From the NCBI RefSeq assembly GCF_900220975.1, contig NZ_OBQD01000008.1, positions 62,001 to 126,000 on the forward strand: DNA of 64,000 nucleotides, given 5' to 3'. The DNA comes from Rhizobium subbaraonis (GTDB lineage Bacteria > Pseudomonadota > Alphaproteobacteria > Rhizobiales > Rhizobiaceae). Each line of letters begins with the position of its first letter. Position 1 is the first letter of the stretch. A program made the translations under genes and the position numbers. The notes beneath the pieces were generated by a model. That model had not been told where the DNA came from and did not search any database. It saw nothing but the letters and a program-made list of their open reading frames with translations. This document shows positions 1,368-23,694 of this stretch, one piece after another.

Positions 1368-1383
1368 TTAACGCCGCCTTAAT
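1368..1383. promoter_or_regulatory. Perfect CtrA-type box (TTAA-N7-TTAA) upstream of the GT4 gene
   Basis: TTAACGCCGCCTTAA matches the full TTAA-N7-TTAA consensus of the cell-cycle regulator CtrA, about 65 bases before the GT4 start codon. The match is seen in the sequence; binding is inferred. It may drive the glycosyltransferase and GH5 pair. Confidence 0.45.
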
Positions 1384-1447
1384 CGCTTGATGCGCTTCTG
1401 CAGGTGGCTTGTGGGGCGCGCGGCGCCTGAAACGTGCGGGTGACGGG

Positions 1448-2677
1448 ATGGACGCGGCGCGGCAAGGTAGTCTTTCTGCAGATTTCGAGCGGCGCGCGCC
1501 GCTGGTGGTGCAGGTCGTGCGCCAGTACGCGCCGAGCCGCGGCGGGCTGGAGGATGTCGTCGTCAACCTGTCGCGTCAGTTGCAAAGCCGTGGCTATCGG
1601 GTCCGCGTCGTGACGCTCGACCGCGTCTTCACCGCCCTGGACCGCAAGCTGCCCGCAAGGGAAACGATCGACGGTATCGAGGTCGTTCGCATTCCCTTTC
1701 GCGGCAGCACCCGTTACCCCATCGCCCCGGAGGTCTTTCGCCACCTCAAGGACGCGGATCTCGTCCATGTCCACGCGATCGACTTCTTCTTCGACGCGCT
1801 GGCATGGGGCAAGGTCCTGCACGGCAAGCCGCTCGTGGCGACCACGCATGGCGGCTTCTTTCATACGTCGAGATATGCGGCGATCAAGCGCATCTGGTTC
1901 AATGTTGCGACTCGTCTGTCGGCACTTGCCTATCGAAGGGTGATCGGTTGCAGCGCGCAGGATACGCGCCTGTTCCGCAAGATCGCCGGGCGCCGCACGG
2001 TCGAGATTGGCAACGGCGCCGATGTCGCCAAATTCCATGATGCCGGTGCGACGGAGCCGCTGCGCAGGATCGTCACCATCGGACGCTTTTCGTCCAACAA
2101 GCGCCTGGACCGTCTTCTGGATGCCCTGTCGCAGTTGATCGTCCACGAGCCTGACTGGCGTCTCTTCATCGTCGGCGTGCCCGGCGAGGTCAGCGAGACG
2201 GAACTGAGGGCGATGATCGCCGAGCGCAACCTCGACAACTATGTCGAAGTGCTTATCGGGCTCTCGAATGAAGGAATCAGGAATACGCTGTCCGGCTGCT
2301 CGCTCTTCGCGTCGGCTTCCGAATATGAGGGCTTCGGGCTCGTGGCCGTGGAGGCGATGAGCGCCGGTCTGATGCCGCTGCTCCATCCCAATCAGGCCTA
2401 TACTGATCTCGCCGGAAGCCATCCCGAAGTGCGGCTTTGCGATTTTCAGGACGCGGAAGAGGCCGCAGGCACCATCCACGCCGCCTTCCTGGGGCTGGCG
2501 CGCGACGTCGCCGGCTACCGGACCGGAGCGATGCGGGCGGCAAATGGCTATTCCTGGGACAAGGTTGCCGGGCGTTATGCCGAGATCTATACCGAAATAC
2601 TCGGAACTGTCGCGCCGGCCGCACGGGTCGCGCCGGCGAAGGGCGTTGAAGGCAATGGGGTTGCGGCCGATGGCTGA
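1448..2677 (+). CDS. Glycosyltransferase family 4 (polysaccharide biosynthesis)
   Basis: This is a GT-B fold retaining glycosyltransferase that moves a sugar from a nucleotide donor to a growing glycan in the cytoplasm. The N-terminal half has the acceptor-side pattern (QYAPSRGGLEDVV) and a THGG element. The C-terminal half has GRFSSNKRLDRLL and the EX7E donor motif EGFGLVAVE. I take ATG 1448 as start; a GTG at 1409 would add 13 atypical residues. It overlaps the next gene by 8 bases, so the two are probably translated together. Donor and acceptor sugars cannot be told. The gene begins a polysaccharide region extending to about 17.6 kb. Confidence 0.88.
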   Translation: MDAARQGSLSADFERRAPLVVQVVRQYAPSRGGLEDVVVNLSRQLQSRGYRVRVVTLDRVFTALDRKLPARETIDGIEVVRIPFRGSTRYPIAPEVFRHLKDADLVHVHAIDFFFDALAWGKVLHGKPLVATTHGGFFHTSRYAAIKRIWFNVATRLSALAYRRVIGCSAQDTRLFRKIAGRRTVEIGNGADVAKFHDAGATEPLRRIVTIGRFSSNKRLDRLLDALSQLIVHEPDWRLFIVGVPGEVSETELRAMIAERNLDNYVEVLIGLSNEGIRNTLSGCSLFASASEYEGFGLVAVEAMSAGLMPLLHPNQAYTDLAGSHPEVRLCDFQDAEEAAGTIHAAFLGLARDVAGYRTGAMRAANGYSWDKVAGRYAEIYTEILGTVAPAARVAPAKGVEGNGVAADG

Positions 2678-3764
2678 GTGCCGACCTGAGCGTAAAGGCT
2701 TGCTTGCGACCCGGCCCGGCAAACCGATGGCGGCCCGTGTTGTTGGAGCTCTGCTGATGGCCATTCTCCTGCCGCTCGAAGTCTCCGCCGCCTGCCTGCG
2801 GGGGGTGAACTTCGCCGGTGCCGAGTTCGGCGATCCTCCCGGCGTCTACGGCAAGGACTACATCTACCCGAGCGACGAGACGATCCGCTATTTTGCCGGC
2901 AAAGGATTTAACGGCGCCCGCCTGCCGTTCCGCTGGGAGCGGCTTCAGCCGAAGCTCGGCAGGGCGTTTGCGATGGGTGAACGCAGACGGCTTCACGATG
3001 CGGTCAAGCGGTTGAAGGCGGCCGGCTTCACCGTCGTTCTCGATCCGCACAACTATGCGTACTATCAGGGCCAGCAGATCGGTTCCGCCGACGTGCCGAT
3101 AGCGGCCTTCGCCGATTTCTGGCACCGGCTGGCCACGGAGTTCAAGAACGATCCCGCGGTGCAGTTCGGCCTGATGAACGAACCGCACGACATCGCTGCT
3201 ACAGATTGGCTGACGGCCGCGAATGCCGCGATCGCCGCCATCCGTTCGGCTGGCGCCACGAATCTCGTCTACGTTCCGGGAACCATCTGGACGGGTGCGC
3301 ACAGCTGGGAGCGCGACAATCCCGGCGGATCGAATGCGACCGTCATGCTGGGTATCGAGGATCCGGAAAGGAACTTCGCCTACGAGGTTCACCAATACCT
3401 CGACAATGACTTCTCCGGCACGCACGAGACCTGCGAGGCTGCCGATGCGGCGGTTTCGGCTCTGGAGCGCTTCACCGCATGGCTGCGCGAAAACGGCAAG
3501 CGGGGCTTCCTCGGCGAGTTTGGCGCGCCTGCGAAGACCGAGTGCCTCACCGCCCTTTCCCGGATGACCGCCGTTGTCGACGGCTCGCCCGATGTCTGGA
3601 CCGGCTGGACCTACTGGGCGGCCGGCGACTGGTGGCCCGAGAACGAGGCGCTCAACATCCAGCCCACCAAGGAAGGCGATCGCCTGCAGCTGCGGGCACT
3701 GGAGTACGGCGGCAGCATCCCCGCGCCCAAGGACGCATGTCCTGCCTTGGGTGAATCCCGCTAA
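2670..3764 (+). CDS. Secreted glycoside hydrolase family 5 (cellulase-like)
   Basis: GH5 endoglucanase-type (beta/alpha)8 enzyme. The acid/base glutamate sits in GLMNEPHD (about Glu171) and the nucleophile in FLGEFGAPA (about Glu283). A hydrophobic segment (ALLMAILLPLEVSAA) follows a basic N-terminus, so export to the periplasm is likely; ATG 2727 is an alternative start that gives a neater signal peptide. The start at 2670 overlaps the stop of the upstream GT4 gene. Hydrolases of this type in polysaccharide loci often trim or release the polymer, for instance bacterial cellulose or other beta-glucans; here the substrate is unknown. Confidence 0.88.
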   Translation: MAECRPERKGLLATRPGKPMAARVVGALLMAILLPLEVSAACLRGVNFAGAEFGDPPGVYGKDYIYPSDETIRYFAGKGFNGARLPFRWERLQPKLGRAFAMGERRRLHDAVKRLKAAGFTVVLDPHNYAYYQGQQIGSADVPIAAFADFWHRLATEFKNDPAVQFGLMNEPHDIAATDWLTAANAAIAAIRSAGATNLVYVPGTIWTGAHSWERDNPGGSNATVMLGIEDPERNFAYEVHQYLDNDFSGTHETCEAADAAVSALERFTAWLRENGKRGFLGEFGAPAKTECLTALSRMTAVVDGSPDVWTGWTYWAAGDWWPENEALNIQPTKEGDRLQLRALEYGGSIPAPKDACPALGESR

Positions 3765-7516: not shown

Positions 7517-7771
7517 ATGAAACAGAAAATCCGTGAACTGCTCGCCAAGCATGGCGGTTTGCCGGTCGCAGTGGACCAGGTTGCCGACAATGCCGATCTC
7601 TATGCTGCGGGCATGTCGTCCTTCGCGTCCGTGCAGATCATGCTGGCGATCGAGGAAGCGTTCGACCTCGAGTTCCCTGACAGCCTTCTCAACCGCAAGT
7701 CGTTCCAGAGCATCGACGCCATCGCGAAAACCGTCGAAGGTCTCACGGGCAGCGCGGAGGCCGCCGAATGA
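7517..7771 (+). CDS. Aminoacyl carrier protein (ACP-like, phosphopantetheine-binding)
   Basis: An 84-residue four-helix carrier protein. The attachment serine aligns with Ser35 in GMSSFASVQ, so the usual DSL triad reads SSF, with Ser replacing Asp. The following helix (MLAIEEAFDLEFPD) is typical. ATG 7517 is preceded by CGGGAGAA. The stop overlaps the next start (ATGA), and the ligase encoded two genes downstream is of the family that aminoacylates such stand-alone carriers. Known carriers of this kind accept glycine or alanine on the phosphopantetheine thiol and are not used in fatty-acid synthesis. It should need a 4'-phosphopantetheinyl transferase encoded elsewhere. Confidence 0.9.
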   Translation: MKQKIRELLAKHGGLPVAVDQVADNADLYAAGMSSFASVQIMLAIEEAFDLEFPDSLLNRKSFQSIDAIAKTVEGLTGSAEAAE

Positions 7772-8940
7772 ACATGTCGACCGGCGCAGGTCTGGCGGAG
7801 CGAGCCGCGCGCGTGGCCGCCGTGGCCGAGGCGCACGCCGATGATGTCGATGCAAAGGGCCGCTTTCCGAAGGAGGCGGTCGATGCGATGCGGGCGGAAC
7901 GCCTGCTGTCGATCCAGATTTCGCCAGGTCTCGGCGGCGAAGGCGCGTCGATTTCCGATATCGCCGAGCTCTGCTCGCTCATCGGCCAGGCCTGTGCGGC
8001 GTCGGCCATGGTCTTCGCCATGCACCAGATCAAGGCTTCGAGCCTCGTCTCGCATGGCGAGGACGCGGACTGGCATCGCGCGTTCATGCGTCGCATCTCC
8101 GACGAGCAGCTGCTGCTGGCATCGGCCACAACCGAGGGTGGGATCGGCGGCAACCTCCGCAACAGCATCTGCGCCATCGCGGTCGAGGGCGACCGCTGCC
8201 GGCTGGAGAAGGACGCGACCGTCATCTCCTACGGTGCCTACGCCGATGCAATCCTGATCACCTCGCGCAGCCATCCGGATGCCGCTTCCACCGACCAGGT
8301 GATGACGGTATTCACCAGGGACCAGTACACGCTCGAGCGCACCCATGTCTGGGACACGCTCGGCATGCGTGGCACCTGCTCTGACGGCTATCTCTTCAAG
8401 GGCGAGGCGCCGGCAACCCAGATCCTGCCCAAGCCGTTTGCGGAGATCGCGGCGCAGTCGATGCTGGCGACCTCGCACCTGCTGTGGAGCGCGGTCTGGT
8501 ACGGGATCGCCGTCAACGCCGTGGCCCGCGCGCAGGCTTTCGTGCGCGCTGCGGCGCGCAGGAGCCCCGGTCAGACGCCGCCGGGCGCGCTGCGGCTCGC
8601 CGAAGCCTCAAGCCTGTTGCAGATGTTGAAATCGAATGTCGTCGAGGGCCTGCGGGAATTCGAGGCGGCAAAGGCAGATCCTGACCGGCTCTCGTCGATG
8701 GGTTTTGCCGTCGCCATGAACAATCTCAAGATCGGCTCGTCGGAAACGATCCTGACGATCATCAATCACGCCATGCTGATCTGCGGGATCATGGGCTACA
8801 AGAACGGTACCCCCTTCAGCCTCGGGCGCCATTTGCGCGACGCGCATTCGGCCCAGCTGATGATCTCCAACGATCGCATTCTCGGCAATACGTCCAATCT
8901 CCTGCTTGTCCATAAGCAGGACACCAGTCTCGTGGGGTGA
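7768..8940 (+). CDS. Acyl-CoA dehydrogenase-fold flavoenzyme, unusual active site
   Basis: A 390-residue protein with the acyl-CoA dehydrogenase N-terminal helical, middle beta and C-terminal helical domains; the middle region contains ATTEGGIGG. At the position where many members carry the catalytic Glu in YEGT after the RDA motif, this one reads M365-I366-S367-N368 (RDAHSAQLMISN). So either the base lies elsewhere, as in isovaleryl-CoA dehydrogenase, or the enzyme uses its flavin in another way, such as a monooxygenase of the DszC/nitrososynthase type. It is translationally coupled to the carrier protein (ATGA), so an aminoacyl thioester on that carrier is a reasonable substrate. That is inference. 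Confidence 0.85.
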   Translation: MNMSTGAGLAERAARVAAVAEAHADDVDAKGRFPKEAVDAMRAERLLSIQISPGLGGEGASISDIAELCSLIGQACAASAMVFAMHQIKASSLVSHGEDADWHRAFMRRISDEQLLLASATTEGGIGGNLRNSICAIAVEGDRCRLEKDATVISYGAYADAILITSRSHPDAASTDQVMTVFTRDQYTLERTHVWDTLGMRGTCSDGYLFKGEAPATQILPKPFAEIAAQSMLATSHLLWSAVWYGIAVNAVARAQAFVRAAARRSPGQTPPGALRLAEASSLLQMLKSNVVEGLREFEAAKADPDRLSSMGFAVAMNNLKIGSSETILTIINHAMLICGIMGYKNGTPFSLGRHLRDAHSAQLMISNDRILGNTSNLLLVHKQDTSLVG

Positions 8941-8946
8941 AGCACG

Positions 8947-9858
8947 ATGGATATGCAGACCTCGTTTCTCGACCGGCTTTTCGATGCCGGCCTTCTGATC
9001 GAAACCGGCGTTGAGGGCCTCTACGGCCGCAGCGGCCAGTTCGAGGACGTGATCACAGCCTTCGAGCGCCTGATCGATCGCTTTGGCGGCGCTGATGGCG
9101 CCGAGGCCATGCGCTTTCCGCCGGGCATGAACCGCGCCTTCTTCGAAAAGAGCGGCTACATGAAGAGCTTCCCGCAGCTGGCGGGCACCGTGCATTCCTT
9201 CTGCGGCAACGAACTCGACCACATGAGCCTGCTGCAGTGCATGGAGGTCGGCGAGGAGGACTGGACGAAGGACCAGAAGGCGACCGATATCGTCCTGACG
9301 CCCGCCGCCTGCTATCCGCTTTATCCGACGATCGCACGGCGTGGACTCATTCCGGCGAAGGGCGCGCTCTACGATCTCCAATCCTACTGCTTCCGGCATG
9401 AGCCATCGCAGGATCCGGCGCGCCAGCAGCTGTTCCGCATGCGCGAATATGTCTGCATGGGGACGGAGACGCACGTCACCGATTTCCGCCAGTCCTGGAT
9501 GGACCGCGGTGTGCAGATGATGAAGGACGTCGGCCTCGAGGTGACCATCGATGTCGCCAACGATCCCTTCTTCGGGCGGGCCGGCAGGATGCTGGCCAAC
9601 AACCAGCGCGACCAGAACCTGAAGTTCGAGCTCCTGATCCCGATCACCTCGGTCGCCAAGCCCACCGCCTGCATGAGCTTTAACTACCATCAGGACGCGT
9701 TCGGCTCGAAATGGGGGCTGATGATGGAGGACGGCAGCGTGGCGCACACCGCCTGCGTCGGCTTCGGCCTGGAGCGCATCGCGCTGGCGTTGTTCCACAC
9801 CCACGGCCTCGACGTCGCCGACTGGCCGGAAAACGTCCGCAAGACCCTCTGGGGCTGA
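8947..9858 (+). CDS. Amino acid:[carrier-protein] ligase (truncated seryl-tRNA synthetase homologue)
   Basis: A 303-residue class II synthetase catalytic core without a tRNA-binding arm. Motif 2 shows as FRHE (Arg150-Glu152) with FRMREY, and motif 3 as [11 protein letters not shown] (around Arg277). Cys122, Glu167 and Cys270 match the Cys-Glu-Cys zinc triad of methanogen-type SerRS and of the Bradyrhizobium amino acid:carrier-protein ligases. Those enzymes use ATP to activate glycine or alanine and attach it to the phosphopantetheine of a partner carrier protein, and they do not charge tRNA. The carrier gene lies two genes upstream, as in characterised clusters. The amino acid used here cannot be read from sequence with confidence. 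Confidence 0.92.
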
Positions 9859-9860
9859 CC

Positions 9861-10835
9861 TTGCAGGCACCGAGCGTCTTTCCGGGCCTGGATCCCGCCA
9901 ACCACCGGCCGCACGCGCTTCACGACCAGGAGCGCATGTGGCCGGAAACCAACTGCTATGTCGATCTCTGGATCGAAGTCCTCCACGCGCTGGGGCTCTC
10001 GCCCGAAGCCATGCTCGGCTTCACCCTGACGCAGGATTTCGAGGGCGACCAGTTCACCTTCTTCAAGGTCCCTCTGGAAGATCTCGAGGCGCTGTACGGC
10101 ATTCGCTGTACGGAGCTTGCGGTCTATGACCGGGTGGAGCGGCATGTCGCCGAGCAGATCGGCCGCGGCCGGCTCTGCCTCGTCGAGATGGATAGCTTTT
10201 ACATGCCCGATACGCGCGGTGTCGGCTACCGGCAGGAGCATGGCAAAACGACAGTTGCAATCAACCGGCTCGACCTTGAAGGCCGGGTACTGGACTATTT
10301 CCACAACGCCGGTTTCTTCCGTCTGGAGGGCGAGGATTTCGACGGGCTTTTCCAGATGAACGCATCCGCCGATGCGCTGCCGTTCCTGCCCTATACCGAA
10401 TTTGCCAAGTTTCCTTCGTCCTATCCATCCGAAGCGGACCTGCTTGCGGCTGCCCATCGCCTTTTGCGCTTTCATTTCGCGCGCCGGCCCCGAGAAAATC
10501 CGATCGCCGCCTTTGCCGGCGTTTTCCCGGGACAGGTGCAAGCGGTGGCCGAGCGCCCGTTCGGCTTCTTCCACAAATACGCCTTCAACACGCTACGCCA
10601 GGTCGGCGCCAACTTCGAACTTGCGGCAAGCCATCTCGACTGGCTCGCAGCAGACGGTTCGCTGGCGCCGGCATCGGACGCCGCTCGCCGGATTTCCGAA
10701 GTTGCGAAGTCAGTTCAGTTCCAGCTTGCCCGCGCCGTGACGCGCAAGCGGTTCGAGCCGCTCGCAACTGCACTGGACCCGGCCGTCGAAGCCTGGGAGG
10801 AGCTGATGCAGGTGCTCTCCCGGCACATCGGTTAA
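9861..10835 (+). CDS. DUF1839 family protein (aminoacyl-carrier-protein cassette)
   Basis: A 324-residue protein with conserved-looking blocks ETNCYVDLWIE, GFTLTQDFEGDQFTFFK and VEMDSFYMPDT, which I recognise as DUF1839. This family is repeatedly found next to amino acid:carrier-protein ligases, and its activity is unknown. The natural start is TTG 9861, two bases after the ligase stop, because the family conserves the LDP...H..H.....W.ETNCY stretch that a later ATG (near 9936) would cut. It has no signal peptide or membrane segment. From its position, a role in passing the aminoacyl group from carrier to acceptor is possible but unproven. Confidence 0.8.
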   Translation: MQAPSVFPGLDPANHRPHALHDQERMWPETNCYVDLWIEVLHALGLSPEAMLGFTLTQDFEGDQFTFFKVPLEDLEALYGIRCTELAVYDRVERHVAEQIGRGRLCLVEMDSFYMPDTRGVGYRQEHGKTTVAINRLDLEGRVLDYFHNAGFFRLEGEDFDGLFQMNASADALPFLPYTEFAKFPSSYPSEADLLAAAHRLLRFHFARRPRENPIAAFAGVFPGQVQAVAERPFGFFHKYAFNTLRQVGANFELAASHLDWLAADGSLAPASDAARRISEVAKSVQFQLARAVTRKRFEPLATALDPAVEAWEELMQVLSRHIG

Positions 10836-10848
10836 CCGGAGCGGCAGG

Positions 10849-13305
10849 ATGGGCGATCATAGACGCGAGCACGGCACGAAGCTCGACAGCGGCTGGCGCC
10901 TATGCCTGACGCCGCCTGGCGCGTGGTCTGCCCCCTCAATGCGTACCGCAGAGACGGCCGCTTTTGACGCCCCTGTTCCCGGAACCGTTGCTGGCGCGCT
11001 GGAGCGGGCCGGGTTGTTCGATCGGACGGACCCTGAGCCCTTGATCGACCGGGACGCCTGGTATTTCCTCGACATTGCAGGCGGCGCACCGGGCCCGGCC
11101 GTCCTTGCCCTCGATGGCCTGGCGACCATCGCGGAGGTCTACTGGAACGGCGAGAGGACGCTCTCTACGCGGTCCATGTTCGTCGCCCACGAGATCGCCG
11201 TGACCGTGAGCGGCGATGATCGTCTTGCCATCTGCTTCCGCGCCCTGGCGCCGCATCTCGAACGACGCGGCCCGCGCGCCCGCTGGCGCCCGCAGATGAT
11301 CGTGCCGCAGGGCCTGCGCCTCGTGCGGACCACGCTGCTCGGTCACATGCCGGGCTGGTGCCCGTCGGTACAGGCTGTAGGCCCGTACCGGCCGGTGCGG
11401 CTAAGGCGACCGCAGGAAGCCAAGTTCGAGGATGTGCAGATCCGTGCCGCTCTAGATGATGAGGGAAACGGACATCTTCACGTCTCGTTGCGGGCGGGCG
11501 ATCGCTCTGTCCCCCCGGAACTCTGCTGTGCCGGTTTTCGCGCGACGATGGAGCGGATGCCGGATGGCCGCTGGTCGGGTGACTTGGCCATGGCGGACGT
11601 CGAGCCCTGGTGGCCGCACACGCATGGAAAGCCCGTCCTGCATGCGGTCGAAGTCCGTGTCGCAGGAGACCGGCAGGTGATCGGGCGCACGGGCTTTCGC
11701 CGACTTCATGTCGATCGCGGCCCGGAAGGCTCGGGCTTCTCTCTGCAGGTGAACGGCGTTCCCGTCTTCTGCCGCGGCGCGGTGTGGACGACGGCCGACA
11801 TCGTCGATCTGCCGGGCGACCGGGAACGATACGCACCGTTGCTTCGCCTGGCGAGAGAAGCGGGCATGAACATGCTGCGCATCGGCGGCACGATGACCTA
11901 TGAGGCGAAGGCGTTCTTCGACCTTTGCGATGAGCTCGGCATTCTCGTCTGGCAGGATTTCATGCTGGCGAACTTCGACTACCCCGCTGCCGATCCGGAG
12001 TTCTGCGATCTCCTGCGCGAGGAGGCGAAGCAACTGCTGAGCCGGCTGTCCGCTTCGCCGTCGCTGGCTGTTCTCTGCGGCGGAAGCGAGATGTTCCAGC
12101 AGGCGGCGATGCTGGGCCTTCCGAAGGCCAGCTGGAGCGGTGCGCTGACCGACAATCTTCTGCCGGAAGTGGCGCAAGCGTTGCGTCCGGACGTGCCCTA
12201 CGTTGCCAATTCCCCCTTTGGCGGCGCCATGCCGTTCTCGCCCGATGCCGGGGTTACCCACTACTATGGCGTCGGAGCCTATTCCCGGCCGCTGGAGGAT
12301 GCGCGCCGGGCCGGTGTGCGCTTCGCCGCCGAATCGCTCGCCTTCGCCCATGTGCCGGAGCAGGCCACGCTGGATGCGCATCTGCCCGTTCCCTCGGTCC
12401 ACGATCCACGCTGGAAGGCGCGCGTCCCTCGCGACCGCGGTGCTTCCTGGGATTTCGAGGACGTGCGGGACCATTATCTCGGCCTGCTCTATGACTGCGA
12501 TCCCGCGCGCCTGCGTCGTGAGAATCCGGCTCGTTATCTCGATCTCTCGCGGGCGGTCAGCGGCGAGGTGATGGAGGCGACATTTGCCGAGTGGCGTCGC
12601 CCGCAATCGACCTGCAAGGGCGCGCTGGTCTGGACCCTGCAGGATCTGCTGCCGGGCGCCGGCTGGGGCGTGATCGACGCCACCGGCCTGCCCAAGCCGG
12701 CGTGGCATGCACTTCGGCGCGCGTTCCGGCCGGTGCAGCTTCTGCTGTCCGATGAGGGGACGAACGGGCTGGACCTGCATGTCCTGAATGACACCGACGC
12801 GGAGCGCCGGTTCGTTCTGGAGATCGCCTGCCTGCGCGACGGCCGCCAGCCGGTGGTATCCGGGCGCTGCGAGCTTTCGCTGGATCCACGCAAGGCTACG
12901 ACGATGGCCGCGACCGATCTGTTCGGCGCCTTCTTCGACACGACCTATGCCTTCCGCTTCGGTCCGCCCGCGCATGACGTCACGGTCGCTGTCCTGCGCG
13001 ATCGCGAAACGGCGTCCCCTGTCGCAGAGGCTTTCCATTTCCCGCAAGGACGTGCCAGCGCGCTGCATCCGGCAACGGCGACAGTCGTGCTCGAGGAGAT
13101 CGACGGACGCTGGCTGTTGCAGATTTCGTCGGACCGGCTCCTCCAGTCCGTGCATATCGATTGCCCAGGATTTTTGCCGTCCGATAACTGGTTCCATCTC
13201 GCGCCGGGCACGCCACGCGCAATTTGCCTGACCGGGACCGGCGGGCTGGAGCGCCCGACGGGCGAGGTCGGTGCACTGAATCTGCCCGGCACTTTGTCGT
13301 TCTAG
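10849..13305 (+). CDS. Glycoside hydrolase family 2-like protein (beta-mannosidase-type)
   Basis: An 818-residue protein with the GH2 layout: N-terminal jelly roll, immunoglobulin-like domain, TIM barrel (VNGVPVFCRGAVWTTAD, GMNMLRIGG, LCDELGILVWQDFMLANFDYP) and C-terminal beta domains. The acid/base region reads CGGSE (Glu414) instead of the usual NNE, and the nucleophile region reads FAAES (Glu495) instead of VSEFG-like. Both glutamates are present but their surroundings have changed. No signal peptide is seen, so it should act in the cytoplasm, which is odd for trimming an exported polymer. It starts 13 bases after DUF1839 and is the last gene of the rightward operon. Confidence 0.82.
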   Translation: MGDHRREHGTKLDSGWRLCLTPPGAWSAPSMRTAETAAFDAPVPGTVAGALERAGLFDRTDPEPLIDRDAWYFLDIAGGAPGPAVLALDGLATIAEVYWNGERTLSTRSMFVAHEIAVTVSGDDRLAICFRALAPHLERRGPRARWRPQMIVPQGLRLVRTTLLGHMPGWCPSVQAVGPYRPVRLRRPQEAKFEDVQIRAALDDEGNGHLHVSLRAGDRSVPPELCCAGFRATMERMPDGRWSGDLAMADVEPWWPHTHGKPVLHAVEVRVAGDRQVIGRTGFRRLHVDRGPEGSGFSLQVNGVPVFCRGAVWTTADIVDLPGDRERYAPLLRLAREAGMNMLRIGGTMTYEAKAFFDLCDELGILVWQDFMLANFDYPAADPEFCDLLREEAKQLLSRLSASPSLAVLCGGSEMFQQAAMLGLPKASWSGALTDNLLPEVAQALRPDVPYVANSPFGGAMPFSPDAGVTHYYGVGAYSRPLEDARRAGVRFAAESLAFAHVPEQATLDAHLPVPSVHDPRWKARVPRDRGASWDFEDVRDHYLGLLYDCDPARLRRENPARYLDLSRAVSGEVMEATFAEWRRPQSTCKGALVWTLQDLLPGAGWGVIDATGLPKPAWHALRRAFRPVQLLLSDEGTNGLDLHVLNDTDAERRFVLEIACLRDGRQPVVSGRCELSLDPRKATTMAATDLFGAFFDTTYAFRFGPPAHDVTVAVLRDRETASPVAEAFHFPQGRASALHPATATVVLEEIDGRWLLQISSDRLLQSVHIDCPGFLPSDNWFHLAPGTPRAICLTGTGGLERPTGEVGALNLPGTLSF

Positions 13306-13351: not shown

Positions 13352-15166
13352 CTATTTCGCCGCCGCGAGCGCCATTTCGAGGATATGCCGCCGCAGAAAG
13401 GTTTTCGCGTCCGGTGGAGACATGTTGTGGTCTGCGCCCTGCACGATCTCGACGGTGACGCCCGGATAGGCCTTGATGCCCGTCCCGTCCGCGCCGAAAT
13501 AGGCGTGGTAGCGTTCCAGTCCGACGTCGGTTTCGCTGTAGATCAGCCGCATCGGAACGTGCCGCTCCGAAAGTCTGCCAAAAGACGCATGCACCGCATG
13601 CCTCAGCCGGCCGAATTTCGACAGCCGCCAGAAGATGCTAGGTGCCGAGCGTGCGACGCGGCTGCCAAGCTGGCGGCATATGTTGCCAGCCGCCCGCCGG
13701 ATGTCGATCTCGCCGGAGGCCAGCCGCCTGAACGTGTCCGCACGCAGGGCCCGCTTGCGGTAATCGCCAAGGGAACGCGGGTTGTAGCGCAGCGCCTCCT
13801 CGACGTTCTCGTCCTCGTCCCACACGAAAGTGAACGGATTGACGGCAACGACGCCGAGGCAACGCTCTTCCTCCAGTGCGCTGCGGAAGGCGAGATAGGC
13901 CCCGCTACAGCGCCCGGCGAGCACGGCAGGCCCGAGCCCGCGTCCGCCAAGAAGGTCGAAGGCCGCACGCACGTCGTCCTGCTGGCCGGCGGAAAAGAGC
14001 ACCTGCCCCGGAGCGTCGGCAACCGGCGGACTGTCGCCGACATTGGCCGCGTCGAAGCGCAGGGACACGACGCCGTTTGAGGCCAGGTACCGCGCGGTTT
14101 CCACGGTGGAGCGCGCCCAGCCAGCCTGCCGGTCGTAGGCCGTACCGAGAAGCACGACCGCGGCGCCACGCCGCTCACCCTTCGGCAGGCAGAGCGTCCC
14201 GAACAGCCGGTGCCGGGGCCCGAAGCGGATCGGCTCCTCGCAGAATTCGTCGCCCTCCACGATTGTCGGAGCGGGGGGCATTGCAGGATGGACGGCGGTG
14301 CCTGTGTCCGCGGCCAGCGAGGCGACCCAGGCGGCAACGGCGGTCGCCACCGCCTCCGGCTGCCTTGCGATGGTGGGATTCGACACGAGATCGTCGTAGC
14401 CGTCATAGTCGCGGCGGGTCACGGTCGCACCGAGGCTCTCCAGCCGATCGGCGAACGCAGCTTCGTTGTCCCGCGCGGCACGATGAACGACGAGCACGGA
14501 CCGGGCCGGGATCGCCTCGATGGCCTGAATGCTGAGACCCCGGACGGCGGCTGCGATCTCCCCCGGCATGACCAGCCCGGCGATCGACACTTTTGCGGCA
14601 ATGCGCTGTTCGTCGCTCAGTCCGAGGCCGTCATCGACCATTTTCGACCAGGCGGCGAGTTCGCGCAGGTAGAAACGGCCGCTGATGACGGGTGCCATCA
14701 GGACGGCACCTTCGACGGGACCGAGACTGCCGGCATTCAGGGCGGCAAAGGTCGCACCAAGTCCATGCCCGACGAGGATCAGTCGGGAAGCGCCGGAAAG
14801 CCGGCGAAGCTCGGCCGCGGCCGCCTCGATCGCCGCCTCCCATACCGGAAGACCACCGGGAAATTCCATGTCGTCGGGCGCGTCGCCGGTGCCGGGGTAG
14901 TCGAAACGCAGGCTGGAAACCCCTGACGCGGCAAAGCGCTCGGCGAGATCGCGCCAGAGCTTGCGCGTGCACATTTCCTCGAAACCCCAGGGGCTGAGGA
15001 AGAGCACCGCGCAATCCGACGGCGCCGTCCCCGCCATTGCGGGTGTGTAGTGCCCGACCGTCCTGCTGAAGGATACGGGCATCGAAGCCGAACCCGGCTC
15101 CCAGGATAGTGTATCGAAGCTGTCGGCGGTTTCCTCTTTCGTGACGTAAAGCATCTGGCAAGTCAC
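13352..15166 (-). CDS. Tandem alpha/beta hydrolase: dead N-domain, Cys-type C-domain
   Basis: A 604-residue protein made of two alpha/beta-hydrolase domains (about residues 50-285 and 305-600). In the first, the nucleophile elbow reads G133-H-G-L-G137, so the serine is missing. In the second it reads G418-R-C-S-G422, with Cys420 as nucleophile, Asp547 and His580 (GADHNM) as likely partners. Cysteine boxes of this form occur in acyl transferases such as PHA synthases and in some dienelactone hydrolases. The GTG start at 15166 overlaps the flippase stop; ATG 15154 is an alternative. It belongs to the leftward group GT2-flippase-hydrolase, facing the carrier-protein operon, and could transfer or remove an acyl group on the glycan. 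Confidence 0.8.
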   Translation of the reverse strand: MTCQMLYVTKEETADSFDTLSWEPGSASMPVSFSRTVGHYTPAMAGTAPSDCAVLFLSPWGFEEMCTRKLWRDLAERFAASGVSSLRFDYPGTGDAPDDMEFPGGLPVWEAAIEAAAAELRRLSGASRLILVGHGLGATFAALNAGSLGPVEGAVLMAPVISGRFYLRELAAWSKMVDDGLGLSDEQRIAAKVSIAGLVMPGEIAAAVRGLSIQAIEAIPARSVLVVHRAARDNEAAFADRLESLGATVTRRDYDGYDDLVSNPTIARQPEAVATAVAAWVASLAADTGTAVHPAMPPAPTIVEGDEFCEEPIRFGPRHRLFGTLCLPKGERRGAAVVLLGTAYDRQAGWARSTVETARYLASNGVVSLRFDAANVGDSPPVADAPGQVLFSAGQQDDVRAAFDLLGGRGLGPAVLAGRCSGAYLAFRSALEEERCLGVVAVNPFTFVWDEDENVEEALRYNPRSLGDYRKRALRADTFRRLASGEIDIRRAAGNICRQLGSRVARSAPSIFWRLSKFGRLRHAVHASFGRLSERHVPMRLIYSETDVGLERYHAYFGADGTGIKAYPGVTVEIVQGADHNMSPPDAKTFLRRHILEMALAAAK

Positions 15167-16686
15167 TCCGCGGGAGCATTCGCCTTCGCCCCGGCGACGA
15201 AGGACAAGCCGCGTCGAAGCGGGGCAAGGCGGGCGGACGATCGCGAGAGCACCATGTCGAGAACATGTGCATCCGCCGGATCGACCGCGCGCAGGAGGCG
15301 CAGGGCTGCGGCATATCCCAGCGCGCCGGCGAGAACACCCGCCGCCAGCCCTGCAAAACCGCGGACGATGTCGGTCACGGCGAAGGCCGCGAGAGCGCAG
15401 ACTGCCGCAGCTGCCGCCACCTTGCCGACCGTCAGCGCAAGCCTGGGCGACATGTCGGCGCTCTTCATGCTGCGAAGGAGGAGGACGCAGATCAGCAGGA
15501 AGACGCCGCCGCGCACCAGCGCACCACCTGCGCCCCCGAACTGCGGAATGACGGCGATGCAGCCGATGAGCATGGCCAGAGCGCCGATGCCCGTCGTCAC
15601 CAGCCTGATGCCGATGCGATCCATGGAGTAGAGGTACTGCGTCGTCAGCTGGCTGAAGACGAAGGCCGGCGAGCCGGCGGCGAGGATCGCGACAATGAGA
15701 CCGCTCGGCCTGAAACTCTCCCCGTAGATCGTCACGACGAGCGGTTCGGCGATGGCGGCAAGGCCGAAGCAGAGCGGAAAGGTGATGTAGGCGAAGCTGC
15801 GCGTGACGGCGGCGAAGATGCCGGCCGGCAGGACGCCGTCGGAGCCTTCACGGCTATGGACATAGAACGGCAGCAGGCTGCCCGTCAGTTGCACCGGCAG
15901 TTGCAGCGCCAGATTGGCAAGCGACAGCGCCACGGCGTAGAAGCCAACGTCCTCCAGGCTCCGAAACTGCTGGAGAAAGAAGAGCTCGGGCCGGTTCAGG
16001 AACACCGCGCTCAGGACGAATTCGAAGAACAGGACGGCCGACGACGATATCAGCGCCTTCGGGGCAAAGCCGGCGCTGTTGCGCGGCGCCAGCACAATCC
16101 CGAGCGCAAAGGCAAAGGGTGCGGCCTGACCGGCGATATAGCCAAGCAACGCGCCTTCCACGCCCCAGCCGACGGCGCCAGCGATGACGAGAACGAGTTG
16201 CAGGATCGACGAAACAACCGTGATGCGGAAGAAGGCGGAAACCCGCTGCTCGCCGAGCAGATAGTTCTTGGTCAGCGCCCCGATCGACTGCACGAAGAGA
16301 AGCGCGCCTGTAAGGATGACGATGCTTTCCGGTGTGCCGATCACCGCTTCGCGCTCGGCTTCCCACGAAACGGACGCATAGAGGATCACGAGCAGGACGG
16401 TGGAGACAAGGACTGGCAAGGCGATATAGGCGGCGAAACCGCGCCGGTCCTGGGTGCCAAGGCCACGCGCCTTCAGCTGCGGAAGGCAGCGCATCAAGAG
16501 CACACCGGTTCCCAGTTCGGCGACGAGCGCGCCGGTCGTGGCGACCCAGAGCGCAAAGGCGACGGTACCGTTCGCCTCGGGCCCTAGCAGGCGGGCGATG
16601 GCGATCGAGCAGGCAAAGCCGGTCACGAGCAGCAGCATTCCCGCCGCCGCGTTCGTGATCGAATTCGACATGATGCCCTTGCTCAT
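15163..16686 (-). CDS. Polysaccharide flippase, Wzx/MATE-like
   Basis: A 507-residue membrane protein with some twelve to fourteen hydrophobic segments and the MOP-superfamily start (AAAGMLLLVTGFACSIAIARLLGPEANG). Proteins of this group flip undecaprenyl-diphosphate-linked repeat units to the periplasm, where a Wzy polymerase uses them. With the Wzy-like and GumC-like proteins encoded at 3.8-7.1 kb, a Wzx/Wzy-dependent pathway is almost complete; the initiating phosphoglycosyl transferase and the outer-membrane exporter are not in the window. It overlaps the hydrolase gene downstream by 4 bases. Confidence 0.87.
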   Translation of the reverse strand: MSKGIMSNSITNAAAGMLLLVTGFACSIAIARLLGPEANGTVAFALWVATTGALVAELGTGVLLMRCLPQLKARGLGTQDRRGFAAYIALPVLVSTVLLVILYASVSWEAEREAVIGTPESIVILTGALLFVQSIGALTKNYLLGEQRVSAFFRITVVSSILQLVLVIAGAVGWGVEGALLGYIAGQAAPFAFALGIVLAPRNSAGFAPKALISSSAVLFFEFVLSAVFLNRPELFFLQQFRSLEDVGFYAVALSLANLALQLPVQLTGSLLPFYVHSREGSDGVLPAGIFAAVTRSFAYITFPLCFGLAAIAEPLVVTIYGESFRPSGLIVAILAAGSPAFVFSQLTTQYLYSMDRIGIRLVTTGIGALAMLIGCIAVIPQFGGAGGALVRGGVFLLICVLLLRSMKSADMSPRLALTVGKVAAAAAVCALAAFAVTDIVRGFAGLAAGVLAGALGYAAALRLLRAVDPADAHVLDMVLSRSSARLAPLRRGLSFVAGAKANAPAE

Positions 16687-16735: not shown

Positions 16736-17644
16736 CTAGCGCTCATACGTTAAAATATCCTGCGCCGGCCGCACGACGCCGGCCGCCGTCCGCCAGCCGT
16801 CCCAGCGGCCGATCAGGATTTGCTGCGAGCGGCGCGCCATGTCTGGCCTGAGCGTTAGCGCATAGATCGCCATTCCGGCGATCGGTCGCAGGAGGCGCGG
16901 CAGAAAACCGGCGGCACCGAAGCGATGCTTGCGCATCACATAGCCAAGGCCGGCGCTGTAGCGGCGGATCTTGGCGATGTTCTCGGGCACGGTCTGGTCG
17001 CAGCCATCCTCCGGGTGGTGGCCGAAAAGGGAGGGATCGTAGTACCCCCTCTCGCCGCGTTCGATGAGCGTCAGGGCCAGGTCCTGGATCTCGTATGCCC
17101 CCCATGGCGTGCCCGAGCCGGGGCCGATCTTCTCATCGAACCCGCCGGCCGCGGCAAAAGCGCTTCGCCGCACGAGGAGCATCCACTCGATCAGTGTCGT
17201 CCAGACGTTGCTGCGGTCGATTGTGGTCGCTTCGGTGTCGAACTGGCCCATGATGGTGGCACCGGCGGCATTGGTAGCCCGGCCGCAATAGAAGTCGGCG
17301 GGCATCCGGTCCGTCAGGCGGAAATACCGTTCCAGCAGGTCGGCCGGATACCAGCAGTCGTCGTCCGGAAACATCAACCATTCGCCGCGCGCCTGGGCCG
17401 CGCCGAGGTTTCGGGCACGGCAGACGCCCTTCTTTGCGGTCTTCAGGTGGACGATCTCGAGCGTCCGAGAGAACGGCACGATCACGTCCAGCAGACGGTC
17501 ATCCTCGTTCTGATCGACCACGATCACCTCGAAATCACGTCCGCTCTGCGCCGCCAGCGACCGAAACAGACGCGACAGTTCATTGGTGCGGCCAAGCGTG
17601 GCCACCACGAGGGAGAGGCGGAATGATCGTTCGTTCGGCGTCAT
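16736..17644 (-). CDS. Glycosyltransferase family 2
   Basis: A 302-residue GT-A inverting glycosyltransferase. The nucleotide-binding start is LSLVVATLGRTNEL, followed by VIVVDQNEDD. The metal-binding DxD region is MFPDDDCWYP, and GAYEIQDLAL lies near the acceptor site. A weak hydrophobic stretch near the C-terminus may bind the membrane. It is first in a leftward run with the flippase (49-base gap) and the tandem hydrolase. Its donor is unknown. A 186-base gap separates it from divergent recF. Confidence 0.87.
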   Translation of the reverse strand: MTPNERSFRLSLVVATLGRTNELSRLFRSLAAQSGRDFEVIVVDQNEDDRLLDVIVPFSRTLEIVHLKTAKKGVCRARNLGAAQARGEWLMFPDDDCWYPADLLERYFRLTDRMPADFYCGRATNAAGATIMGQFDTEATTIDRSNVWTTLIEWMLLVRRSAFAAAGGFDEKIGPGSGTPWGAYEIQDLALTLIERGERGYYDPSLFGHHPEDGCDQTVPENIAKIRRYSAGLGYVMRKHRFGAAGFLPRLLRPIAGMAIYALTLRPDMARRSQQILIGRWDGWRTAAGVVRPAQDILTYER

Positions 17645-17830: not shown

Positions 17831-18955
17831 ATGCCCCACAAGGTCACCATTTACAGCCTCAAGCTTCACGATTTTCGCAACTATGCGTCAGTCGCGCTCG
17901 GGCTCGATGATCGCCATGTCGTACTCACCGGCGCAAACGGTGCGGGAAAGACGAACCTCATGGAGGCCGTCTCGTTTCTTTCCCCCGGACGCGGGCTGCG
18001 TCGGGCGGCCTATGCCGACGTCGCCCGCGAGGGTGCTGCCGGCGGCTTCAGCGTCTTCGCCGCAATCGATGGAATGCAGGGCGAGGTCGAGATCGGCACG
18101 GGCACGGATACCGGCGAGGACGGGCAATCACGTCGCCTCAGGCTGAACGGGACGACGGCACGTTCGGTGGACGAGCTCCTGGACCATCTGCGCGTCGTCT
18201 GGCTGACGCCCTCCATGGACGGCCTTTTCACCGGCTCGTCCTCGGATCGCCGCCGCTTCCTCGATCGGCTCGTGCTGTCGCTCGACCCCGAACACGGACG
18301 AAGGGCCGCCGATTTCGAAAAGGCGATGCGCGGCCGCAACCGCCTGCTGTCGGAACCTCGCCCCGATGCACGCTGGCTGGACGCGCTGGAAACGCAGATG
18401 GCCGAGCTCGGAGTCGCCATGGCGCTGGCGCGCCGGGAGCTGGTCGGCCTGCTCGCCGATATCGTCGAGGCTTCCCGCGACGAAGGGCCGTTCCCGTCTT
18501 CTTCCATGACGTTGAGCGGATTCCTCGACGACCGGCTCGATCGTCCCGCCTACGAGATCGAGGAGGAATATGCTGCCCTCCTGCGCGACGGACGCTTTCG
18601 CGATGCCGCCGCCGGCCGAACGCTGGACGGCCCGCACCGCGTCGATCTCCTCATTCGCCATCGGGAAAAGAGCATGGACGCGGCCCGTTGCTCCACCGGT
18701 GAGCAGAAGGCGCTGCTGGTCGGCATGATCCTCGCCCATGCGGGTCTCGTCGCAGGCATGACCGGACATGCGCCGATACTGCTGCTGGACGAGATCACCG
18801 CCCATCTCGACGAGGGGCGGCGTGCGGCCCTGTTCGATCGGATCGACGCGCTCGGCGGGCAGGCCTTCATGACGGGAACCGATCGTGCGATGTTTGCGGC
18901 GCTCGGCGAGCGGGCGCGCCTGCTGACCGTCGAAAACGGCAGGATCGAGGGATGA
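17831..18955 (+). CDS. recF: DNA replication and repair protein RecF
   Basis: An SMC-like ATPase that loads RecA on gapped DNA with RecO and RecR. The Walker A motif is GANGAGKTN near residues 35-43, the ABC-type signature lies in STGEQKALLVGM, and Walker B is LLLDEITAHLDE near the C-terminus. At 374 residues it has normal length. ATG 17831 fits the conserved start (KVTIYSLKLHDFRNYASV). Unlike in gammaproteobacteria it is not next to dnaN-gyrB; here it precedes a MoeB-like gene. Confidence 0.96.
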   Translation: MPHKVTIYSLKLHDFRNYASVALGLDDRHVVLTGANGAGKTNLMEAVSFLSPGRGLRRAAYADVAREGAAGGFSVFAAIDGMQGEVEIGTGTDTGEDGQSRRLRLNGTTARSVDELLDHLRVVWLTPSMDGLFTGSSSDRRRFLDRLVLSLDPEHGRRAADFEKAMRGRNRLLSEPRPDARWLDALETQMAELGVAMALARRELVGLLADIVEASRDEGPFPSSSMTLSGFLDDRLDRPAYEIEEEYAALLRDGRFRDAAAGRTLDGPHRVDLLIRHREKSMDAARCSTGEQKALLVGMILAHAGLVAGMTGHAPILLLDEITAHLDEGRRAALFDRIDALGGQAFMTGTDRAMFAALGERARLLTVENGRIEG

Positions 18956-18977
18956 AACCCAACTTCGGAGACGGCAG

Positions 18978-23124: not shown

Positions 23125-23694
23125 TCAGTCCTTGGCGCGCTCGACGTAGGAGCCGTCCTCGGTGGCGATCACGACGCGGGTGCCAGCCTGGATGTGCGGC
23201 GGAACGAGCGTGCGCACGCCGTTGGACAGCATGGCGGGCTTGTAGGAGGAGGATGCCGTCTGGCCCTTCACGACCGGCTCGGTCTCGGTGATCTCCAGCG
23301 TGACGTGACGCGGCAGGTCGAGCGCGATCGCCACGCCCTCATGCGTCGACAGGATCACGGCCATGCCCTCCTGCAGGTAGGCCTTGGCATCGCCGACGTC
23401 GTCCGCCGACATCGTCAGCTGGTCGTAGCTCTCCGGGTTCATGAAGTGAAACCCGTCGCCGTCTTCGTAAAGGAAGGTGTGCTCGCGGTCTTCGACATGG
23501 GCGCGCTCGACCTGTTCGGTCGTGCGGTAGCGCTCCGATACCTTCACGCCGTCGGAGATGCGGCGCATGTCGACCTGTGTGACCGGCGTGCCCTTGCCCG
23601 GGTGGAAGTTCTGTGCCGTCAGAACCACGTAGAGTTTGCCGTCGACGTCGAGCACGTTGCCCTTGCGGACGGAAGAAGCGATGATCTTTGCCAT
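23125..23694 (-). CDS. efp: Elongation factor P
   Basis: EF-P of 189 residues relieves ribosome stalling at polyproline stretches. It has the KOW-like N-domain and two OB domains. The modified lysine is Lys34 in HPGKG, exactly where EpmA attaches beta-lysine in E. coli. The start at [13 protein letters not shown] gives the usual length. The modification genes epmA and epmB diverge from it across 145 bases, so substrate and modifying enzymes may share a control region. Confidence 0.96.

What the first reader, a model, noticed from the sequence alone, without database searches (positions are those of the whole stretch)
7517..13305. Aminoacyl-carrier-protein cassette embedded in a polysaccharide locus
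A carrier protein, an acyl-CoA dehydrogenase-fold enzyme, an amino acid:carrier-protein ligase, a DUF1839 protein and a GH2-like protein form one tightly packed operon inside a region with flippase, polymerase, co-polymerase and glycosyltransferases. The ligase family is known to load Gly or Ala on a carrier and not on tRNA, but the fate of the aminoacyl group is, as far as I know, not described. The context suggests the group is oxidised or transferred onto a surface glycan, giving an amino-acid-decorated polysaccharide made by a route unlike D-alanylation.
Basis: partly seen in the sequence, partly recalled or inferred. Interest (0 to 1): 0.88.

Follow-up and report, generated by a model that had tools for sequence, protein, structure and literature searches.

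The report
Amino-acid relay for bacterial surface sugars
A conserved set of soil-bacterium genes appears to hook an amino acid onto a small carrier protein and pass it, through two enzymes that each use a cysteine, towards a surface sugar polymer, which would be an undescribed way of decorating biofilm polysaccharides.

Summary
The operon is real. Carrier protein (CP), acyl-CoA-dehydrogenase-fold protein (ACAD), amino acid:CP ligase (LIG), DUF1839 and GH2 keep order and strand in 78 of 80 named loci. Every DUF1839-positive genome in three surveys also carries it: 15 of 15, 16 of 16, 36 of 36, sometimes on another contig. The DUF1839 model folds like CcbD, CtaG and AziU2/U3, which work on carrier-bound acyl groups. 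HYD has a near-invariant Cys in GxCSG and a dead N-half. In one genome the ligase is absent and the CP Ser, DUF1839 Cys and HYD Cys are all gone. Most likely this is an aminoacyl relay that decorates an exopolysaccharide or its precursor. Acceptor, amino acid, and the roles of ACAD and GH2 are not shown.

The parts
7517..7771 (+). Aminoacyl carrier protein (CP), 84 aa; pantetheine Ser35
   Evidence: PF00550 and NF005480 over cut-off; PDB 4h2w_C E 3.1e-29; Ser35 in 28 of 28 representatives
7768..8940 (+). Acyl-CoA-dehydrogenase-fold flavoprotein (ACAD), 390 aa; no Glu at the canonical base positions (positions recalled)
   Evidence: PF02771, PF00441; alignment to 7p98; Ile/Val at 366, Ser/Ala/Cys at 236, His237, Asn368 and Arg370 invariant in 27
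8947..9858 (+). Amino acid:[carrier protein] ligase (LIG), 303 aa, aminoacyl-tRNA-synthetase-like
   Evidence: NF005479 514 bits; 4h2w E 4.4e-96, 3mey (Bll0957) E 2.4e-91; Cys122, Glu167, Cys270 in 23 of 23
9861..10835 (+). DUF1839, 324 aa (start uncertain, TTG at 9861), predicted papain-like carrier-protein acyltransferase, Cys32
   Evidence: PF08893 456 bits; model pLDDT 92.2; the 19 Foldseek hits at E<=0.001 are all AziU2/U3, CtaG or CcbD; Cys32 in 36 of 38
10849..13305 (+). GH2 beta-mannosidase-like protein, 818 aa, no signal peptide seen
   Evidence: PF22666; 5n6u, 2je8; Glu414 and Glu495 in 46 of 46
13352..15166 (-). HYD: tandem alpha/beta hydrolase, dead N-half, C-half with Cys420 in GxCSG; sixth component
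   Evidence: TIGR03100/TIGR03101 matches below cut-off; co-occurrence; Cys420 in 45 of 45, later one exception, G788
15163..16686 (-). Flippase (Wzx-type), context gene
   Evidence: PF13440; strong in 5 of 15 DUF1839-positive relatives
16736..17644 (-). GT2 glycosyltransferase, context gene
   Evidence: PF00535
5118..7232 (-). Wzz/GNVR co-polymerase, context gene
   Evidence: PF02706, PF13807
3804..5111 (-). Polytopic Wzy-like polymerase candidate, context gene
   Evidence: No Pfam match; hydrophobic stretches
2544..3764 (+). GH5 glycoside hydrolase with a hydrophobic stretch near its start, context gene
   Evidence: PF00150
1409..2677 (+). GT4 glycosyltransferase, context gene
   Evidence: PF00534, PF13439

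Best explanation
A six-protein cytosolic aminoacyl relay that serves an exopolysaccharide pathway. (1) LIG activates an amino acid (glycine or alanine, from recall of the family) with ATP and loads it on the pantetheine arm of CP: family-level, strong. (2) ACAD acts on the CP-bound aminoacyl group; it lacks the usual dehydrogenase base, so perhaps as an oxidase or monooxygenase: inferred, weak. (3) HYD takes the acyl group from CP onto Cys420: inferred from a near-invariant Cys nucleophile, genome-wide co-occurrence and joint decay with the CP Ser. (4) DUF1839, a papain-like enzyme of the CcbD/CtaG fold, also works by a Cys acyl-enzyme and hands an aminoacyl group to an amine or hydroxyl of a sugar: inferred from fold and joint decay. 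Whether HYD and DUF1839 act in series or on different acceptors is open. (5) GH2 trims or transfers sugar on the acceptor side: inferred, weak. Result: an exopolysaccharide, or its lipid- or nucleotide-linked precursor, carrying an aminoacyl-derived group that matters for biofilm.
For: Order and strand kept in 78 of 80 named loci, and seen in other families and another class. DUF1839 and full-length HYD (both / DUF1839 only / HYD only / neither): 15/0/0/46 in 61 relatives, 16/0/1/381 in 398 of the phylum, 36/0/5/59 in 100 of family f225 (Fisher p 1e-14, 1e-27, 4e-22). HYD and DUF1839 lie on different contigs in G017, G023, G046, G517 and G438. All five f225 genomes with HYD but no DUF1839 have an amino-acid loader near HYD: CP-ACAD-LIG-HYD in two, LIGs on both sides of HYD in two, adenylation ligase-CP-HYD in one. 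Catalytic columns: CP Ser35 28/28, LIG Cys/Glu/Cys 23/23, GH2 Glu414 and Glu495 46/46, DUF1839 Cys32 36/38, HYD Cys420 45/45. In G788, where GH2 and LIG are absent from the fetched locus and the LIG search finds none, CP Ser35 is Pro, DUF1839 Cys32 is Ala and HYD Cys420 is Gly, with frames open. Fold: all 19 PDB hits at E<=0.001 are AziU2/U3, CtaG or CcbD; CcbD moves a CP-tethered amino acid via Cys to an amino sugar (PMC12945683, passages). EPS link: a VpsR/sigma-54 regulator, GH2-DUF1839-LIG-ACAD-CP and two CRP-type regulators in G642 and G772 match the interval between berB (BCAM1342) and berA (BCAM1349); 15 of 18 bec genes were hit in a biofilm screen (PMC5507470).
Against: No aminoacylated polysaccharide of this kind was found in the papers seen. 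The one repeat unit read here (Bep: Gal, Glc, Gal, Man; PMC7084887) has no amino sugar and no amino acid, though it was extracted in 0.3 M NaOH and measured in NaOD, which would strip esters but not amides. 24 of 80 named loci (over 18 kb) have neither HYD nor a recognised polysaccharide gene nearby. In G748 and G771 tblastn finds no CP in the fetched 20 kb around LIG and HYD, nor in the second LIG-HYD locus of G746 (L165, L166, L174). LIG occurs without HYD: G051 and G130, where HYD matches are only weak. A DUF1839 profile finds no CcbD, CtaG or AziU sequence, and the reported DUF1839 triad order differs (PMC10318531). G713 and G737 keep CP Ser35 and HYD Cys420 but have a Cys-less DUF1839 and no GH2 or LIG beside it, so DUF1839 chemistry is not needed wherever the relay exists; G246 has DUF1839 but no GH2 within its 20 kb. 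becG is the mildest bec mutant tabulated and polar effects are possible. ACAD and GH2 roles are guesses. Survey genomes are related, so the p values overstate independence; the HYD cut was set after seeing the gap in E-values, and in the phylum survey at most three HYD candidates per genome were scored. Different contigs in draft genomes do not prove distance (G017).
Confidence: 0.55

Rival explanations
1. The cassette makes a small aminoacyl-sugar or other metabolite (a signal or a building block) that is not part of the polymer; the polysaccharide genes next door are co-regulated neighbours.
For: The 19 significant fold neighbours of DUF1839 come from natural-product pathways. 24 named loci over 18 kb show no recognised polysaccharide gene or HYD nearby. 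A distant ligase relative lies with an AurF-type N-oxygenase, a nitronate monooxygenase and a methyltransferase (L132).
Against: HYD follows DUF1839 genome-wide and, where the two lie apart, HYD lay beside recognised polysaccharide genes in at least three of the loci examined (L146, L149, L151). Smooth, biofilm-poor bec mutants in print.
Confidence: 0.22
2. HYD and DUF1839 hydrolyse rather than transfer: they clear wrongly loaded carrier or act in quality control, and the cassette senses amino-acid supply to gate polysaccharide synthesis.
For: HYD has an alpha/beta hydrolase fold; the 50 PDB hits listed are esterases, lipases and other hydrolases. The Bep paper suggested quality control for BCAM1334 (PMC3584217).
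Against: A Cys in place of Ser in GxCSG, near-invariant, is more usual for acyl transfer (recalled). A clearing enzyme needs no second Cys enzyme, no GH2 and no ACAD.
Confidence: 0.1
3. The aminoacyl group goes to a lipid (undecaprenyl carrier, lipid A or a membrane lipid) rather than to the polymer.
For: Soluble transferases and a flippase nearby; such lipids are known aminoacyl acceptors (recalled).
Against: No membrane transferase in the operon; the fold neighbour CcbD uses a sugar amine.
Confidence: 0.08
4. The genes travel together by hitch-hiking, without a shared pathway.
For: HYD and the flippase stand in several orientations and distances to the operon.
Against: HYD co-occurs even from other contigs; joint loss of catalytic residues in G788.
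Confidence: 0.05

Closest known systems
Amino acid:[carrier protein] ligase and its carrier (Bll0957; NF005479, NF005480)
   Same: Same families over curated cut-offs; Cys122, Glu167, Cys270 line up with Cys/Glu/Cys of the solved enzyme
   Different: The solved work stops at loaded carrier (recalled); here the downstream enzymes and a likely destination are proposed
CcbD/LmbD, CtaG, AziU2/U3 (papain-like proteins of carrier-protein pathways)
   Same: Fold over most of the chain, TM about 0.6 for the best hits, Cys at the start of the first helix
   Different: No detectable sequence kinship; triad order reported as Cys-Thr/Ser-His against Cys-His-Glu in CcbD; polysaccharide rather than antibiotic context
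Hydrolases 1 and 2 filed as exosortase A-associated (TIGR03100, TIGR03101)
   Same: HYD looks like a fusion of both kinds; separate pairs in L153 and L154 also have GxCSG in one partner and GxRLG in the other
   Different: Scores are below both family cut-offs; no exosortase was looked for
bep (Burkholderia cenocepacia) and bec (B. pseudomallei) biofilm exopolysaccharide clusters
   Same: Regulator order around the cassette in unnamed G642 and G772 matches the interval between berB and berA; ManC, Wzc-like and HYD genes lie within about 30 kb in G642
   Different: The papers treat BCAM1334 as a hydrolase and describe no aminoacyl relay in the passages and sections seen
Dlt D-alanylation of teichoic acids
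   Same: Amino acid on a carrier protein destined for a surface polymer (recalled)
   Different: Unrelated ligase, soluble Cys enzymes, no DltB-type family matched in the operon

Membership tests
Amino acid:[carrier protein] ligase | Over the curated NF005479 cut-off | tested here: met
   514.1 bits against 357
Amino acid:[carrier protein] ligase | Zinc ligands Cys/Glu/Cys (identity of the ligands recalled) | tested here: met
   Cys122, Glu167, Cys270 in 23 of 23 representatives and in all 14 later rows; aligned to 3mey and 4h2w
Amino acid:[carrier protein] ligase | Catalytic core only, no tRNA-binding part | tested here: met
   303 aa; matches only positions 296-504 of the 518-position SerRS model
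Amino acid:[carrier protein] ligase | Loads Gly or Ala on the partner carrier (recalled) | not testable with these tools
   Needs enzymology
Aminoacyl carrier protein (NF005480) | Over cut-off and pantetheine Ser present | tested here: met
   119.9 bits against 72; Ser35 28 of 28; later 11 of 13 rows, the two others being the one G788 gene with Pro
CcbD/CtaG-type papain-like transferase | Same fold over the chain | tested here: met
   19 of 19 Foldseek hits at E<=0.001
CcbD/CtaG-type papain-like transferase | Cys nucleophile | tested here: met
   Cys32 in 36 of 38; exceptions are the operon copies of L137, L140 and L171, and the copies of L170, L175 and L176
CcbD/CtaG-type papain-like transferase | Cys-His-Glu/Asp triad in canonical order | tested here: inconclusive
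CcbD/CtaG-type papain-like transferase | Sequence kinship | tested here: not met
   Profile A2 finds none at E<=10; claimed only as 'works like'
Exosortase A hydrolase 1 / 2 | Over TIGR03100 / TIGR03101 cut-offs | tested here: not met
   92.2 against 168.45 and 59.4 against 202.75 bits; not filed there
GH2 beta-mannosidase-like | Homology and both catalytic Glu (roles recalled) | tested here: met
   5n6u E 1.3e-50; Glu414, Glu495 46 of 46; substrate unknown
Acyl-CoA dehydrogenase | Fold family | tested here: met
   PF02771 and PF00441 over cut-off
Acyl-CoA dehydrogenase | Catalytic base Glu at one of the two usual positions (recalled) | tested here: not met
   Ile/Val366 and Ser/Ala/Cys236 in 27 of 27; position 366 read from the alignment, position 236 placed from recall
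Dlt system | DltC-type carrier and DltA ligase | tested here: not met
   DltC model 28.4 bits against 68; no adenylation ligase in the operon
bep/bec cluster | Cassette lies between the two regulators inside the cluster | tested here: inconclusive
   Order matches in unnamed G642 and G772; named Burkholderia sequences were not compared

The most novel reading that the evidence does not exclude
A previously undescribed class of glycan-modification machine: an aminoacyl-tRNA-synthetase relative, a dedicated carrier protein and two unrelated cysteine transferases (papain-like DUF1839 and a Cys alpha/beta hydrolase fused to a dead twin) pass an oxidised aminoacyl group to a biofilm exopolysaccharide. 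The same HYD module also appears with adenylation-type loaders, so it would be the shared transfer unit of several aminoacyl-carrier systems, bep/bec loci and loci with the hydrolase pairs named after exosortases included.
Probability: 0.35. Interest if true: 0.92.

Novelty: new variant of a known kind. Interest (0 to 1): 0.8.

Why it matters
The fate of the amino acid loaded by amino acid:carrier-protein ligases is, as far as I recall, an open question since these enzymes were described. The finding names two concrete candidate transferases with testable cysteines, adds a gene (HYD) that accompanied DUF1839 in every positive genome surveyed, across two proteobacterial classes, and connects the system to biofilm polysaccharides. 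It also suggests why a decoration could have been missed: the one polysaccharide structure read here was solved after alkali extraction (PMC7084887). A carrier-protein route to surface decoration in Gram-negative bacteria would sit beside D-alanylation of teichoic acids.

Tried and rejected
Flippase as the invariant partner: rejected; strong in 5 of 15 DUF1839-positive relatives. The minus-strand 461-aa frame 1379-2764: rejected as the antisense of a GT4 gene. HYD as a plain esterase: its PDB fold matches are generic hydrolases, which settles nothing; the Cys motif argues otherwise. DUF1839 kinship by sequence: nothing convincing in the PDB. My early note that every genome keeps one Cys-bearing DUF1839 (as worked on after entry 5) was wrong: in G713, G737 and G788 the only copy found is Cys-less. 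My note that both incomplete named loci are cut by contig ends (entry 9) was wrong for L083. A strict core of CP, loader and HYD side by side does not hold everywhere: no CP was found near LIG and HYD in G748 and G771. Haft 2006 (PMC1569441, term search only) has no mention of 'hydrolase'. Searches for DUF1839, bll0957/Atu2571/Atu2572 and aminoacyl carrier protein, BCAM1343-1348 and becF-K (908 matches mostly to the name Beck, 10 listed) showed no account of the fate of the amino acid; the library lacks most subscription journals. The original Bll0957 and Atu papers were not read (recalled only).

Full report
What is there. The window is 64 kb of a 6.58-Mb genome (G000) whose nearest named relatives by DUF1839 are Rhizobium rhizolycopersici and Mycoplana. 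Between a DNA polymerase I gene end (3-1274) and a recF-like/ThiF pair (17831-19778) lies a polysaccharide locus. Inside it, five genes on + run head to tail: carrier protein (CP), an acyl-CoA-dehydrogenase-fold protein (ACAD), amino acid:carrier-protein ligase (LIG), DUF1839 and a GH2 protein.

Conservation. A DUF1839 alignment (A1) found at least 525 relatives in named genomes; the best 80 loci were kept, so this sample is close kin. 78 of 80 hold all five genes in the same order and strand. L073 begins inside ACAD at its contig start; L083 has unrelated DNA upstream of a LIG fragment, with DUF1839 and part of GH2. The same block occurs in other families of the order and in another class, family f225. 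DUF1839 is patchy: 15 of 61 relatives, 4 of 289 of the class, 16 of 398 of the phylum, 36 of 100 of f225.

A sixth component. The minus-strand gene 13352-15166 (HYD) is a tandem alpha/beta hydrolase. In the 61 relatives full-length HYD (E 3.5e-66 or better) is found in exactly the 15 DUF1839-positive genomes; other hits are partial (E 1.5e-6 or worse). In the phylum all 16 DUF1839-positive genomes have it (E 1.1e-44 or better) and one more, G640; the next hit is 3.5e-23 and partial. In f225 all 36 have it (E 1e-20 or better; in G737 and G782 as two pieces) and five more. HYD and DUF1839 lie on different contigs in G017, G023, G046, G517 and G438; in G046 HYD is in the middle of a 1.8-Mb contig, while in the fragmented G017 closeness is not excluded. 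The five extra f225 genomes: G718 and G751 have CP-ACAD-LIG-HYD; G748 and G771 have LIGs on both sides of HYD, but no CP was found in the 20 kb; G640 has an amino-acid adenylation ligase, a carrier of the same family and HYD in a row. LIG is found in 38 of 100 f225 genomes, all within the 41 with HYD; G640, G713 and G788 have no match, and G737 only a weak, unlinked one. G191 has CP, LIG, a 555-aa protein and HYD in a row, without ACAD, DUF1839 or GH2 in the 20 kb. The reverse does not hold: G051 has LIG but neither DUF1839 nor HYD, and G130 has LIG with only weak HYD matches. So HYD goes with an amino-acid loader, and DUF1839 looks like an added module, usually with GH2 (not in G246). By contrast the window's flippase has a strong homologue in only 5 of the 15 DUF1839-positive relatives and a weak one in four more.

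Catalytic residues. CP Ser35 is invariant in 28 representatives; LIG Cys122, Glu167, Cys270 in 23; GH2 Glu414 and Glu495 in 46. HYD Cys420 in GxCSG and His580 are invariant in 45, Asp547 in 44, while the N-half nucleophile position is Gly (33), Arg (11) or Ser (1). In one search, which adds later loci, 14 of 16 HYD rows keep Cys420, the two others being one gene, that of G788. Separate hydrolase pairs in L153 and L154 show the same split, GxCSG in one and GxRLG in the other. DUF1839 Cys32 is present in 36 of 38 and His148 in 38 of 38; the two Cys-less copies are operon copies in genomes with a second, Cys-bearing copy (both in L137; L140 with L162), and L171 shows the same. ACAD has Ile/Val and Ser/Ala/Cys where I recall the two usual base glutamates to lie. 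None of the six window proteins shows a signal-like N-terminus by a hydropathy scan; among homologues 1 of 46 GH2, 2 of 38 DUF1839 and 5 of 45 HYD exceed the threshold.

A natural experiment. In G788 the ligase and GH2 are missing from the fetched locus, and the LIG survey finds none in the genome; tblastn of LIG on the fetched DNA gives only a 57-residue hit at E 0.007 elsewhere (L177). There CP Ser35 is Pro, DUF1839 Cys32 is Ala and HYD Cys420 is Gly, all in open frames. Joint loss of the three residues that would hold the acyl group fits one relay. In G713 and G737, also without LIG or GH2 beside it, DUF1839 is degenerate (Arg or Ser for Cys32, Arg for His148), while CP Ser35 and HYD Cys420 stay; G737 has an adenylation ligase some 4 kb from CP (L176, 52% identical to that of L152). 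So HYD's Cys tracks the CP Ser, and DUF1839's Cys tracks LIG. This rests on three genomes.

Fold of DUF1839. The model has mean pLDDT 92.2. All 19 PDB matches at E 0.001 or better are AziU2/U3, CtaG or CcbD; the next is phytochelatin synthase at E 0.025. CcbD loads a carrier-tethered proline on its Cys and passes it to the amino group of a sugar (PMC12945683, passages). CtaG is proposed as the peptidyl transferase that moves hydroxybenzoate between carriers (PMC6772006, passages). I read nothing on AziU2/U3. A 2023 survey had placed DUF1839 among papain-like proteins, with a Cys-Thr/Ser-His triad and a guess that it processes glycans at the cell wall (PMC10318531, passages). CcbD contacts its carrier through arginines near its C-terminus; DUF1839 has Arg291 in 38 of 38 and Arg295 in 35 of 38 in a late helix, a parallel only. 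Sequence profiles do not connect the families. The HYD model (pLDDT 89.2) gives generic hydrolase matches in the 50 rows listed.

Link to exopolysaccharide. In G642 and G772 the order is a sigma-54 regulator with a VpsR domain, GH2, DUF1839, LIG, ACAD, CP, a CRP-type regulator, a second CRP-type regulator, a sugar transferase. In B. cenocepacia berB is BCAM1342 and berA BCAM1349 (PMC9684580, table passage), which by numbering leaves six genes between, the number seen here; that they are this cassette is inference. BCAM1334 of the bep cluster is annotated TIGR03100 (PMC3584217, section 19). In the homologous bec cluster 15 of 18 genes were hit in a biofilm screen; two of the other three were not in the library, and becF was in the library but not found; becG, annotated acyl-CoA dehydrogenase, gave OD600 0.84 against 1.25 in wild type and smooth colonies (PMC5507470, sections 17-18 and passages). 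Polar effects cannot be excluded. The Bep repeat has no amino acid or amino sugar, but extraction and NMR used 0.3 M NaOH or NaOD (PMC7084887, abstract and passages), so an ester would be lost; an amide would not. Against a universal link: 24 named loci over 18 kb have no recognised polysaccharide gene or HYD nearby. Where HYD lies apart from DUF1839, L149 has a polysaccharide set homologous to the window's, L146 and L151 have flippase-type and other polysaccharide genes, L147 and L150 have a glycosyltransferase, while L145 and L148 are less clear.

Mechanism and verdict. Shown by sequence: family membership of LIG and CP, operon conservation, co-occurrence of HYD, retained or jointly lost catalytic residues. 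Inferred: acyl transfer by HYD and DUF1839, a sugar or polysaccharide acceptor, the amino acid, and the roles of ACAD and GH2. I give 0.55 to the relay serving an exopolysaccharide, 0.22 to a small metabolite. It works like CcbD-type transfer and, at the loading step, like D-alanylation, but is a member of neither on the tests made. Novelty: new variant of a known kind, with a real chance of being a new class.

Noticed in passing
window 23125-26025: Elongation factor P, an EpmA-like class II synthetase paralogue and an EpmB-like radical SAM protein (the Epm names are recalled). In several Rhizobiaceae loci the homologous trio lies directly upstream of the carrier-protein operon (e.g. L021, L049, L076), which puts two different synthetase-derived ligases side by side.
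   Followed up: partly
L137, L140/L162, L171: Genomes with two DUF1839 copies, the operon copy without Cys32 and the other with it (for L171 both copies are in the locus); recalls the AziU2-AziU3 pair.
   Followed up: partly
L132:8372-12697: A distant ligase relative with an AurF-type N-oxygenase, an 84-aa possible carrier, a nitronate monooxygenase and an O-methyltransferase: looks like a natural-product cluster on an aminoacyl carrier.
   Followed up: partly
L153:8792-16709: The separate hydrolase pair beside a large protein with condensation, adenylation and carrier domains, another sign that this hydrolase pair goes with aminoacyl carriers.
   Followed up: partly
L129, L130, L155: Ligase plus ACAD without DUF1839, GH2 or HYD in the 20 kb; in L130 beside homoserine succinyltransferase and a Cys/Met PLP enzyme.
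   Followed up: no
L127:7850-9517: A 555-aa protein without any Pfam or NCBIfam match between HYD and the ligase-carrier pair in G191.
   Followed up: no
L083:1-4080: A named Rhizobium leguminosarum contig with other DNA in place of CP, ACAD and the start of LIG: a rearrangement or an assembly fault.
   Followed up: no
window 1379-2764: A 461-aa minus-strand open frame that is only the antisense of a GT4 gene.
   Followed up: yes
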